The notes under the pieces were generated by a model. That model ran no database searches, was not told the origin of the DNA, and saw nothing but the letters and a program-made list of their open reading frames with translations. From Ancylomarina salipaludis (GTDB lineage: Bacteria; Bacteroidota; Bacteroidia; Bacteroidales; Marinifilaceae): a DNA stretch of 64,000 nucleotides. The position numbers were made by a program, and so were the translations under genes. Where the stretch lies: contig NZ_SAXA01000001.1 of assembly GCF_004122035.1 (NCBI RefSeq), forward strand, positions 482,998 to 546,997. Reading direction: 5' to 3'. Position 1 is the first letter of the stretch; each line of letters opens with the position of its first letter. Shown one piece after another: positions 9,486 through 40,096 of this stretch.

Positions 9486-9707
9486 CGTTTATATTCAATT
9501 GATTCAAATTCATTCATCACCACTTAAACAAGTATCCATCTAAAATTAGCTAAAGCATATGCAGATCTGCGGGATATTTTATATCTTAGCCCCACTGAAA
9601 TTTCTCCATTTTGTAAACTATGATACTTTTGAAATAAAAGAGCTGGATAAATAAACTCTGGAAGAAGTATCGTCTTTTTTTAACATCGAAATCAAGCCAT
9701 CTGCAAT

Positions 9708-37526: not shown

Positions 37527-38921
37527 ATGACTTACGATTTAATAGTAGTAGGAAGTGGACCCGGAGGCTATGTAGCCGCCATCAGAGGTGCACAATTGGG
37601 TATGAACGTTGCCGTAGTTGAACGTGCCGAACTTGGTGGTATCTGTTTAAACTGGGGATGTATCCCAACCAAATCATTATTAAAATCAGCTCAGGTATTC
37701 GATTATATGAAGCATTCTGCTGATTATGGTATCGCTGTAGAAGGTGAAATCAAGCCTGATTTTGAAAAAATTGTGGCTCGTAGCCGTGGCGTTGCCGACA
37801 AAATGAGTGCAGGTATTCAATATTTATTGAAAAAGAACAAGGTTACTGTTATCAATGGTTTTGGTAAACTAACTGCTGATAAGAAACTGGAAGTTTTGGC
37901 TGAAGATGGTAGCAAAACCAACTACGAAGCGAAACATATCATTTTAGCAACAGGTGCTCGCTCCCGCGAATTACCAAACTTGCCTCAGGATGGTAAAACT
38001 ATTATTGGTTATCGTAAAGCTCTAACTCTTGAGAAATTACCTAAATCGATGATTGTTGTTGGTTCTGGTGCAATTGGATCTGAGTTTGCTTACTTCTACT
38101 CAAGCCTTGGAACTCAGGTTACTTTGGTTGAGTTTATGCCAAACATTCTTCCTATTGAGGACGAAGAAGTTTCAAAACAAATGGGACGTTCGTTCAAAAA
38201 GAATAAAATTAAGGTGATGGTTAACTCATCGGTTGAGTCTGTTGAAGGAACCGAAGGAGATCTAAAAGTAAACATCAAAAATAAAAAAGGTGAGATCGAA
38301 GTTCACGAGTGTGAAATCGTTCTTTCAGCTGTAGGTATTACACCTAATACTGAAAATATTGGTCTTGAAGAGGCTGGTGTTGCAACCGAAAACGGACGTG
38401 TAGTTGTTGACGAGTATTTCCGTACAAATGTTGAGGGCGTTTATGCGATTGGTGATATCGTAGCAGGCCCTGCATTAGCTCACGTGGCTTCTGCTGAAGG
38501 TATCTGTTGTGTAGAGAAAATCGCAGGTATGCATGTTGAGCCTATCGACTACACGACTATCCCTGGTTGTACATACACCACTCCCGAAGTTGCTTCAATG
38601 GGATTGACTGAAAAGGCTGCACAGGAAGCTGGTCACGAAATTAAAGTGGGTAAATTCCCATTCTCTGCTTCAGGTAAAGCAAGTGCTGCCGGTGCCAACG
38701 AAGGTTTTGTAAAATTGATTTTCGATGCGAAATATGGTGAGCTTTTAGGAGCCCATATGGTGGGTGCTAATGTCACCGAGATGATTGCTGAATTAGTCGT
38801 AGCCCGTAAACTTGAAACCACAGGTCACGAGTTAATCAAAGCTATCCATCCTCATCCAACCATGAGTGAAGCGATAATGGAAGCAGCTGCTGCTGCCTAT
38901 GATGAAGTGATTCATATTTAA
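37527..38921 (+). CDS. lpdA: Dihydrolipoyl dehydrogenase
   Basis: E3 flavoprotein of 2-oxo acid dehydrogenase complexes and/or the glycine cleavage system. The 464-aa protein has the FAD-binding GSGPGGYVAAI (9-19), redox-active Cys40 and Cys45 in GGICLNWGCIPTKS, the NAD-binding GSGAIGSEFA, and the catalytic His in HPHPTMSEA near residue 446. Length is normal. No E1 or E2 gene is adjacent, so which complex it serves is open. A strong hairpin follows. Confidence 0.96.
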   Translation: MTYDLIVVGSGPGGYVAAIRGAQLGMNVAVVERAELGGICLNWGCIPTKSLLKSAQVFDYMKHSADYGIAVEGEIKPDFEKIVARSRGVADKMSAGIQYLLKKNKVTVINGFGKLTADKKLEVLAEDGSKTNYEAKHIILATGARSRELPNLPQDGKTIIGYRKALTLEKLPKSMIVVGSGAIGSEFAYFYSSLGTQVTLVEFMPNILPIEDEEVSKQMGRSFKKNKIKVMVNSSVESVEGTEGDLKVNIKNKKGEIEVHECEIVLSAVGITPNTENIGLEEAGVATENGRVVVDEYFRTNVEGVYAIGDIVAGPALAHVASAEGICCVEKIAGMHVEPIDYTTIPGCTYTTPEVASMGLTEKAAQEAGHEIKVGKFPFSASGKASAAGANEGFVKLIFDAKYGELLGAHMVGANVTEMIAELVVARKLETTGHELIKAIHPHPTMSEAIMEAAAAAYDEVIHI

Positions 38922-38941
38922 ACATTATATCATATAACAAA

Positions 38942-38979
38942 AAGAGGCCGTCTCAAACTTAGATTTGAGACGGCCTCTT
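38942..38979. terminator. Strong hairpin downstream of lpdA
   Basis: Perfect 16-bp stem (38942-38957 with 38964-38979), 6-base loop. The T tract is weak on the plus strand and better on the minus strand, so it probably insulates both directions. It separates lpdA from the CATG array. Confidence 0.85.
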
Positions 38980-39066: not shown

Positions 39067-39299
39067 TATGTCGTTTTATATTACGTCATGCCAGAATTTA
39101 TCGTCCTATGTTCATTATTATTATCTCATGTCGTTTTTTTCATGACCATGTTATTATTATTCTTTCCATGTTGATATTTTGCCCGTCATGTTAATTATTT
39201 GGGCTCCATGTTCAACATGACGAGTAAAAAACCAACATGATGCTAATTTTTCCGACATGGTAAGGTAAAAACTAACATGAGACCCTATTTAGCAACATG
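39067..39299. repeat. CATG-headed 20-bp periodic array, inverted at its centre
   Basis: Eight plus-strand units start at 39067, 39087, 39107, 39127, 39147, 39167, 39187 and 39207, each with C or T then ATG, mostly followed by T. From 39216 the same signature runs on the minus strand: CATG occupies 39216-39219, 39236-39239, 39256-39259, 39276-39279 and 39296-39299. The two halves are mirror images about 39213. Only about six bases at the head of each unit are conserved (CATGTT). The following bases vary but tend to contain a T tract around unit positions 8-14. The region has no open frame. It is neither a CRISPR array nor an ordinary tandem repeat. Function is unknown; a protein-binding array or a long imperfect RNA hairpin are the obvious possibilities. 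Confidence 0.85.
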
Positions 39300-39520
39300 A
39301 CAACGTATATTAATAAAAACTCTCACGATGTTTAGACATACAAGAAATTGAAAGAGATATATTAAGTCAATTATCTCACTTAGACTAGTCATAATTAGCC
39401 TGAAAAGAATTTAAACCCATAATATTTTAAAAATATGATAATGCCTGTATAAGAGACATTATCAATAATTTTAAATTCTTCAGCTTCGAAAAAATATAGG
39501 TTGACTCTTTCAAGCAAAAT
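39300..39520. other. AT-rich spacer right of the CATG array
   Basis: Non-coding. An 8-bp inverted repeat (TGATAATG/CATTATCA near 39436-39465) is visible. I see nothing else. Confidence 0.4.
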
Positions 39521-39556: not shown

Positions 39557-40096
39557 CTATTCCGAAACAATCCAATCCATCTTAATATCGTGCTCATCGG
39601 TAGGAACCGACTGCAAAAGCTGGAAATCAAAACAAACCCCCAGTTTATAGGCATTAAGACTCGAAAGCAGTTTGTCGTAATAGGCTTTCCCTCTTCCCAT
39701 ACGGTTGTTATCCACATCGAAAGCGACCCCTGGAACCAAAATCAAATCAATTTCAGTATAATCCAAAAAGAGTTCGCCTGAGGGTTCAGGAATACCAAAG
39801 TTCTCACCCGCAACTAAATCTTCTTCACCTCTAAACACTCGCAAATCGAGATCGTTACCATTCACGCAAGGCAATATCACACGCTTGCTCGCTGCCCACT
39901 TCACTACAAAATCAGAGGTTTGAACCTCATCCTCCATAGCCCAATAAAGCATCACTGTTTTGGCAGCAATAAATTCGGGTAATTGCTCAACTTTATCCAA
40001 AATAAGCTTCGATCGGCGAATTTTATCTTCCAGGCTTATCGCATTTTTTAGTTGACGAATCTCACGACGGATCCGTTTTTTTTCTTCATCTATCAT
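39557..40096 (-). CDS. 5-formyltetrahydrofolate cyclo-ligase
   Basis: Converts 5-formyl-THF to 5,10-methenyl-THF with ATP in the cytosol. The 179-aa protein has the N-terminal basic helix (KKRIRREIRQL), the PCVNGNDLDLR region, and the signature DVDNNRMGRGKAYYDKLL with the ATP/Mg-binding glycine-rich turn. Length is normal for the family (YgfA/MTHFS). It lies downstream of gldB on the same strand, but a 211-base spacer with an inverted repeat separates them. Confidence 0.92.
   Translation of the reverse strand: MIDEEKKRIRREIRQLKNAISLEDKIRRSKLILDKVEQLPEFIAAKTVMLYWAMEDEVQTSDFVVKWAASKRVILPCVNGNDLDLRVFRGEEDLVAGENFGIPEPSGELFLDYTEIDLILVPGVAFDVDNNRMGRGKAYYDKLLSSLNAYKLGVCFDFQLLQSVPTDEHDIKMDWIVSE

What the first reader, a model, noticed from the sequence alone, without database searches (positions are those of the whole stretch)
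39067..39299. Mirror-symmetric array of 20-bp units headed by CATGTT
Eight units in exact 20-bp register run rightward and five run leftward; the halves are mirror images about 39213 (39207 pairs with 39219, 39187 with 39239, 39167 with 39259, 39147 with 39279). Only the unit head is conserved, but a T tract tends to follow at about one helical turn. Twenty bases is close to two helical turns, so the heads lie on one DNA face. It could be a protein-binding or bending array, a partition or silencing site, or an RNA whose two halves pair at each head. I know of no described element of this form.
Basis: seen in the sequence. Interest (0 to 1): 0.82.

Follow-up and report, generated by a model that had tools for sequence, protein, structure and literature searches.

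The report
Two-armed phased CATGTT repeat array
Between two genes of a bacterium likely of the genus Ancylomarina lie 13 copies of a short signal close to CATGTT at exact 20-base steps, in two arms that face each other; related species carry similar arrays, as do a few genomes from other bacterial phyla, and the array is likely a docking strip for a DNA-binding protein not yet identified.

Summary
At 39067-39299 eight heads run right and five run left in exact 20-bp register about 39213. A 13-head mirror chain compares with at most 3 in 100 simulated 64-kb sequences.

It is one copy of a dispersed element. The same genome has two more, and all four same-genus genomes searched, a Labilibaculum MAG and two Prolixibacteraceae MAGs hold relatives. 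Copies at different loci keep the same unit order outward from the centre. At one locus compared in three species, heads are conserved while spacers change faster than the flanks. In Microbacterium sp. HD4P20, 17 of 18 fetched arrays are also two-armed, with heads meeting across a 12-15 bp centre. The CATGT head of the distant genomes was selected by the query; the mirror layout was not.

The RNA-hairpin idea is not supported: mirror-partner spacers are no more alike than others, and reordering one arm does not weaken folding. IS21 terminal repeats measured here have a 23-24 bp step, so it is no ordinary IS21 end. The closest relative searched lacks the array at the lpdA locus.

Best reading: a non-autonomous, dispersed DNA element whose arms are phased protein-binding sites. 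The protein is unknown.

The parts
39067..39206 (+). left arm: seven 20-bp units, heads at 39067, 39087, 39107, 39127, 39147, 39167, 39187, all pointing right; spacers T-type
39207..39219 (.). centre: palindrome CATGTTCAACATG made of the innermost left head (39207-39212), one base, and the innermost right head (39214-39219)
   Evidence: same centre sequence at the G000 C23, L201, G004 and Labilibaculum OB13 arrays
39214..39299 (-). right arm: five heads on the - strand ending at 39219, 39239, 39259, 39279, 39299; spacers alternate T-type and A-type from the centre outward
38942..38979 (.). terminator-like hairpin with 16-bp perfect arms between lpdA and the array
37527..38921 (+). left neighbour, lpdA (dihydrolipoyl dehydrogenase)
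39557..40096 (-). right neighbour, 5-formyltetrahydrofolate cyclo-ligase, convergent with lpdA
   Evidence: Pfam PF01812

Best explanation
The window holds one copy of a dispersed two-armed DNA element whose 20-bp phased CATGTY heads are likely binding sites for a sequence-specific DNA-binding protein that would fill both arms from outside towards the palindromic centre. Shown: exact phase, mirror layout, several copies per genome, common unit order between loci, heads conserved while spacers change. Inferred: each head is read in the major groove and the A/T block about one turn further on in the minor groove, so that sites two turns apart lie on one face and the bound protein forms two polar, converging filaments. 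Inferred: the element does not encode its protein and was copied between loci by a factor acting in trans. Not known: the protein, and whether the host gains anything.
For: Phase: 60 of 65 head-to-head steps in eight Ancylomarina/Labilibaculum arrays are exactly 20 bp; the others are 21, 21, 21, 40 and 41 (the script allowed steps of 19-21 and 39-41 only; one further 41-bp step to a stray TATGTC at 39340 was dropped as outside the array). Copies: arrays at C1 (window), C23 and C54 of the same genome and in all four other genomes of the genus searched plus one other family member (7 of 115 genomes match, one of them, G094, an ordinary tandem repeat; reversed pattern 0 in the six others). Constraint: in orthologous arrays of one locus heads are 77/84 and 75/84 identical, spacers 126/168 and 99/158, flanks 126/138 and 90/120 (head versus spacer P = 0.0013 and 5.6e-6). 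Common descent: spacers at the same distance from the centre are 0.503 identical between different loci, against 0.427 when order is permuted (P = 0.0005, 102 pairs). Same layout elsewhere: in Microbacterium HD4P20, 17 of 18 fetched arrays have two facing arms with a 12-15 bp centre, whatever the orientation of the flanking genes (2 convergent, 5 divergent, 10 tandem of 17 scored by a crude ORF call), so the mirror form belongs to the element and not to its site.
Against: No binding protein was identified. The constraint test rests on one locus in three species; head versus flank differs only in one of the two comparisons (P = 1 and 0.011). One arm of this locus has changed more than the other between G000 and G002 (left-arm spacers 43/70, right-arm 71/84 identical), so exchange between arrays may be at work and might keep heads alike without selection. 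Copies decay: at queE G001 keeps only left-arm units and G003 only right-arm units. Head conservation among the distant genomes is ascertainment, since the query asked for CATGTY.
Confidence: 0.5

Rival explanations
1. The array is a miniature transposon: the two arms are transposase-binding end arrays brought together when the body was lost, and the element moves with a transposase in trans.
For: Dispersed copies and presence/absence at lpdA; two inverted arms like two transposon ends; IS21 elements carry arrays of 3-5 terminal repeats, and a structural paper describes repeated elements L1, L2 / R1, R2 at IS21 ends bound by IstA (PMC11208146, passages seen). Each unit can be read as TG...CA. 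IS200-like Y1 transposase genes lie within about 1-2.5 kb of three arrays: G002, G000 C23 (shortened) and Prolixibacteraceae L115, although the L058 and L115 proteins do not find each other at E 1e-3.
Against: IS21 repeats measured here have a 23-24 bp step in 13 of 25 loci (12 distinct elements) and no 20-bp step among the chains printed. No IstA/IstB-like ORF in 33 array or array-like loci, of which only L201 is of the Ancylomarina group; no IS21 transposase hit in G000-G003, a weak one in G004; one broken IstB-type fragment in G003, on another contig than its array. Centres of 12-15 bp in 17 of 18 HD4P20 arrays are not what random internal deletions would give. Heads stay conserved in place. 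Target-site duplications were not searched for systematically.
Confidence: 0.25
2. The array acts as RNA or as a cruciform: the two halves pair at the heads into a long hairpin.
For: Window array folds better than shuffles on both strands (z -4.66 and -5.42); heads pair at mirror positions. In three of six arrays (window, G004, OB13) the spacers fold better than spacers shuffled with heads kept (z -2.28, -2.42, -3.20).
Against: Mirror-partner spacers 0.342 identical against 0.387 for non-partners. Permuting right-arm units does not clearly weaken folding in any of six arrays (z between -0.29 and +1.36). Left arm all T-type, right arm alternating, so many partners clash. No Rfam match in the window at gathering scores.
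Confidence: 0.07
3. Each arm was made by templated addition of 20-nt repeats to the 3' end of a DNA break, as a telomerase-like reverse transcriptase would do, and the two ends were then joined head to head at the self-complementary CATG.
For: Both arms run 5' to 3' towards the join and stop at nearly the same place in the unit in 17 of 18 HD4P20 arrays; several centres are perfect palindromes such as CATGTCGACATG. One-armed arrays in Lentibacillus would be one-end events.
Against: Units differ between arrays of one genome, which one RNA template would not give. The Ancylomarina copies share unit order between loci, which fits copying of a whole array.
Confidence: 0.06
4. An old tandem duplication that decayed, with no function.
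For: Tandem repeats with a 20-bp step are common in the pattern scan: many of the hits in the visible part of the list are near-exact repeats. Some copies of the array do decay.
Against: Heads are conserved and spacers are not, in orthologous copies; adjacent spacers in the window arms are only 0.47 (left) and 0.32 (right) identical; tandem duplication does not give two inverted arms.
Confidence: 0.07

Closest known systems
STAR elements of Staphylococcus (interspersed intergenic direct repeats)
   Same: Dispersed in intergenic DNA, a short conserved motif with variable spacers, number of motifs varies, function and spreading mechanism unknown (PMC3532100, passages seen).
   Different: 14-bp GC-rich motif with at least 40 bp between copies; the passages seen mention no facing arms and no 20-bp phase.
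Multiple terminal repeats of IS21-family insertion sequences
   Same: Arrays of 3-5 repeats with a conserved head at element ends, bound by a transposase (PMC11208146, passages seen).
   Different: Step 23-24 bp, other heads (for example TGACCA), istA/istB beside the repeats.
BIME/REP arrays of enterobacteria (recalled, not tested by a call on them)
   Same: Intergenic, dispersed mosaics of short units in both orientations.
   Different: REP units are hairpin-forming palindromes of about 35 bp tied to RAYT transposases; here units are 20 bp with a 6-bp conserved head.
20-bp tandem-repeat centromere of plasmid pSK41 bound by ParR (recalled)
   Same: 20-bp step, proposed polymer of protein along one face.
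   Different: Plasmid centromere next to parMR; here chromosomal, several copies, two facing arms; no such genes were noticed beside the arrays, but ParR was not searched for.

Membership tests
IS21 terminal repeat array | istA and istB beside the repeats | tested here: not met
   No IstA/IstB-like ORF (phmmer, E 1e-5, seeds from seven IS21 loci) in 33 array or array-like loci, only L201 of them from the Ancylomarina group. For G000-G004 and G054: no NF033546 hit in G000-G003, weak (3e-4) in G004; PF01695 hits are one full-length ORF per genome (my reading: DnaA) plus fragments or weak hits, all on other contigs than the arrays or at least 45 kb from them
IS21 terminal repeat array | repeat step | tested here: not met
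   23-24 bp in 13 of 25 IS21 loci (17 of the 25 viral-contig loci and 8 loci of relatives; L079 and L322 are the same element); the other 12 gave no such chain; no 20-bp step among the chains printed
MITE | terminal inverted repeats with target-site duplication and a matching transposase | tested here: inconclusive
   Arms are inverted; no systematic search for target duplications was made, and the G002 site without array is too diverged to place the ends; Y1 transposase genes lie near three arrays but no transposase is tied to most
Structured RNA / hairpin | pairing of the two halves kept in evolution | tested here: not met
   no Rfam match at gathering scores
STAR element | 14-bp motif with at least 40 bp between copies | tested here: not met
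   6-bp head, 14-bp spacer against the definition in PMC3532100
CRISPR array | exact repeats of about 23-47 bp with unique spacers of similar length (recalled definition) | tested here: not met
   Conserved part is 6 bp, two orientations in one array
ParR-type centromere | parM/parR operon beside the repeats | not tested
   ORFs near arrays were only read by eye; ParR and ParM were not searched for
REP/BIME with RAYT | Y1 (RAYT-type) transposase gene tied to the repeat | tested here: inconclusive
   Y1 genes near three arrays: L058 11931-12491 (about 2.2 kb away), a shortened copy at L055 9784-10215, and L115 5458-5892 (about 1 kb away). With these two as phmmer queries no other ORF within 2.5 kb of the arrays in the set matched at E 1e-3, apart from a second L055 fragment

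The most novel reading that the evidence does not exclude
A previously undescribed class of chromosomal element: two convergent arms of exactly 20-bp phased CATGT sites meeting head to head across a 12-15 bp centre, found in Bacteroidota (Ancylomarina, Labilibaculum, Prolixibacteraceae) and Actinomycetota (Microbacterium), with one-armed forms in Bacillota, each recognised by one widespread but patchy, still unknown protein family that builds converging filaments on DNA.
Probability: 0.35. Interest if true: 0.8.

Novelty: new variant of a known kind. Interest (0 to 1): 0.6.

Why it matters
Short intergenic repeats are common in bacteria, but few have a layout that points to a defined protein assembly. 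Here phase, polarity and a shared centre give a clear, testable prediction: one protein, sites two turns apart, two converging arms. If a single protein family explains the arrays of Ancylomarina, Microbacterium and Lentibacillus, it would be a new DNA-organising or mobile system. Microbacterium sp. HD4P20, with at least 18 arrays, stands alone among 198 sampled genomes of its genus: 196 have no match to four exact heads and one has a plain tandem repeat. That makes it a good comparison set for finding the protein.

Tried and rejected
Chance: rejected. Ordinary tandem repeat: rejected for this array, though many of the visible hits of the 107-stretch scan are near-exact tandem repeats (the output was cut). 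IS21 ends: looked for intact IS21 in relatives and array-bearing genomes and measured their terminal repeats; step and neighbours do not fit. RNA hairpin: tested and disfavoured. Transcription terminator between convergent genes: rejected, gene orientation is mixed. Plasmid or phage origin: blastn found nothing in plasmids with three array queries or in phages with one; pattern scans of viral contigs gave tandem repeats and one chance-like locus (L389). Recurrent neighbour gene: the clusters that join loci of different genera are few, among them short-chain dehydrogenases at three Microbacterium and one Lentibacillus loci; not every cluster was annotated, so a shared protein could have been missed. 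General 20-bp arrays with other heads in 20 other Microbacterium stretches, 361 kb: none, too little sequence to be strong. Literature: searches listed no paper describing such an array; only open-licence PMC papers are held. Of the papers, passages of PMC11208146 and PMC3532100 were seen; the rest were seen as search listings only.

Full report
Observation. Reading the sequence confirms the finding: eight heads at 20-bp steps from 39067 to 39207 pointing right, five ending at 39219 to 39299 pointing left, mirror axis 39213. A three-unit pattern with one mismatch gives 9 matches in the window against 0.04 expected. A two-armed chain statistic gives 13 heads in the window, 2 in the reversed window and at most 3 in 100 simulated sequences.

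Where it lies. The array sits in a 635-bp gap between lpdA and the 5-formyltetrahydrofolate cyclo-ligase gene, which converge, behind a terminator-like hairpin with 16-bp arms. In the closest relative searched, G002, whose LpdA is 98% identical, about 90 bp separate the same two genes and there is no array; the 900 bp printed downstream of lpdA for G001 and G004 show none either. So this copy is specific to the window's genome among those examined.

It is one of a family. The same genome carries arrays on contigs C23 and C54; two further single hits with one mismatch, on C2 and C12, are at the level of the reversed-pattern control. In 115 relatives, 7 match: G000, four same-genus genomes, G054, and G094, which is an ordinary tandem repeat. 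In 393 genomes of the order drawn evenly, 3 match; besides G000, the hits in G094 and G152 are near-exact tandem repeats. G004 appears to be Ancylomarina euxinus and G054 Labilibaculum sp. OB13, because contigs of identical length carry the array at the same place in named records; the genus of the window is inferred from that.

Three loci. Alignments show (a) an array upstream of queE in G001, G003, G004 and OB13, with its flank also next to the C54 array of G000; (b) an array after the same 267-aa gene in G000 C23, G002 and L201; (c) the window copy. Six other genomes of the genus that holds G054 have no array within 900 bp upstream of queE, and neither do G002 or G000 directly at queE. Some copies are reduced: G001 keeps four left-arm units and G003 five right-arm units.

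Anatomy. Over the 87 units that the script collected from nine arrays the consensus is CATGTT, then a purine-leaning base, then an A/T block at positions 9-14 with 97% A/T at 11-12. Of 65 head-to-head steps in eight arrays 60 are 20 bp. In the right arm neighbouring spacers are unlike (0.29) while second neighbours are alike (0.53), so two unit types alternate with a 40-bp super-step; the left arm shows no alternation (0.41, 0.42). The order of units from the centre is shared between loci: collinear identity 0.503 against 0.427 permuted, P = 0.0005. The copies therefore most likely descend from one ancestral two-armed array.

Constraint. Comparing array (b) of G000 with G002 and with L201, heads are 77/84 and 75/84 identical, spacers 126/168 and 99/158, flanks 126/138 and 90/120. 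Heads differ from spacers at P = 0.0013 and 5.6e-6; spacers change faster than the flanks (P = 0.00025 and 0.038); heads are more conserved than the flanks in one comparison only (P = 1 and 0.011). Between G000 and G002 the left-arm spacers are 43/70 and the right-arm spacers 71/84 identical, which suggests exchange between arrays in addition to point change; this weakens, but does not remove, the argument for selection on heads.

Not an RNA. The window array folds better than dinucleotide shuffles (z -4.66 and -5.42), and in three of six arrays the spacers fold better than shuffled spacers with heads kept. But spacers at mirror positions are not more alike than others (0.342, n = 29, against 0.387, n = 114), and permuting the right-arm units changes the predicted energy little in all six arrays (z -0.29 to +1.36). 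The good fold follows from facing heads and shared unit types, not from a kept pairing register.

Distant relatives or look-alikes. A scan of the genome-contig collection for four CATGTY heads at 20-bp steps gave 107 stretches. In the visible part of the sorted list many are near-exact tandem repeats; spacers are truly different in Ancylomarina, Labilibaculum, three Prolixibacteraceae loci from two MAGs (L115; L136 and L141) and L201, whose title was not shown. Lentibacillus and Microbacterium sp. HD4P20 carry many dispersed arrays with partly different spacers: 68, 84 and 137 three-unit hits in G116, G117 and G115 against 1, 1 and 0 for the reversed pattern (in Lentibacillus some heads count on both strands, because AACATGTT is read both ways). 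Of 18 HD4P20 arrays fetched, taken from a listing that was cut off, 17 are two-armed with the heads meeting across 12-15 bp; that test allowed variant bases in the heads (for example CTTG in the left arm of L335), and the right arm of L341 has two heads only. L327 failed it. Twenty random stretches from other Microbacterium genomes reach at most a chain of 3, tested with a different head set. Only 2 of 198 Microbacterium genomes match four exact heads, and the second (G482) is a plain tandem repeat. In Prolixibacteraceae, L115 and L136 end in a facing centre (CATGTTAAACATG, CATGTTCAACAGG) followed by a short, degenerate right arm, and L141 is one-armed. The query selected the head and the step, so their agreement across phyla is expected; the facing arms and short centre were not selected and are the real evidence for a shared design. 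In the 12 loci titled Lentibacillus that I looked at the arrays read as one-armed; four of them were also tested for a facing centre and none was found.

Gene context. The HD4P20 arrays lie between tandem (10), divergent (5) and convergent (2) genes, one not scored, by a crude GC3-based ORF call (it counts L327 too). The mirror form is therefore a property of the element and not of convergent transcription. Arrays gave no blastn match in plasmids or phages. Neighbour genes that recur between genera are few and include ordinary short-chain dehydrogenases. IS200-like Y1 transposase genes lie near three Bacteroidota arrays: G002, G000 C23 (shortened) and L115; no ORF of another locus in the neighbour set matched them. 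This is a weak point in favour of the transposon rival.

Comparison with IS21. Because IS21 ends carry repeated IstA sites (PMC11208146, passages seen), I measured IS21 ends in 25 loci: 13 show chains of at least three repeats with a 23-24 bp step and other heads; no 20-bp step appears among the chains printed. None of 33 array or array-like loci encodes IstA or IstB. The array works like a set of transposase end sites in layout, but it fails two tests for being an IS21 end.

Conclusion. The array is real, multi-copy and probably old, and it is shaped by something that cares about a CATGTY head every 20 bp in two facing arms. The most economical reading is a dispersed element made of phased sites for a DNA-binding protein in trans; a transposase of an undescribed short element is the main rival. 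The protein is not known, and no experiment has been done.

Noticed in passing
L059 17885-18775 (G003, beside queE): A second, unrelated repeat family: long direct repeats about 63% alike over 743 bp with motifs such as AAGACGAGGAATTTGCATCACAGATGAGTCGTC; similar-looking text lies upstream of queE in G002 (L378), where the CATGTT array is missing.
   Followed up: no
L058 11931-12491, L055 9784-10215 and L115 5458-5892: IS200-like Y1 transposase genes within about 2.5 kb of arrays; the L058 one carries the peptide DRDAINRV, repeated near the shortened L055 copy.
   Followed up: partly
L056 about 9550-9640 and queE at G000:C54:130452: The flank that elsewhere joins the array to queE is split in the window's genome, with about 11 kb between array and queE, suggesting an insertion or rearrangement.
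   Followed up: no
L061 13892-14155: An AbiH-family abortive-infection gene (Pfam PF14253) starts directly after the Labilibaculum OB13 array.
   Followed up: no
L325-L342: In several Microbacterium HD4P20 arrays (for example L330, L332, L333, L338, L339) one arm has mostly C and the other mostly G at unit position 6, so the arms are distinguishable; unit sequences also differ between arrays of the same genome.
   Followed up: partly
L124 2919-3404; L128 3500-3800; L143 5380-5590: Paenibacillus ihumii, Nocardia macrotermitis and a Tannerella MAG hold 20-bp arrays with ACATG-type heads; alternating unit types are visible in the Paenibacillus and Tannerella ones.
   Followed up: no
window 39436-39464: Terminator-like AT-rich hairpin between the array and the cyclo-ligase gene (minus strand, followed by T-rich DNA).
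   Followed up: no
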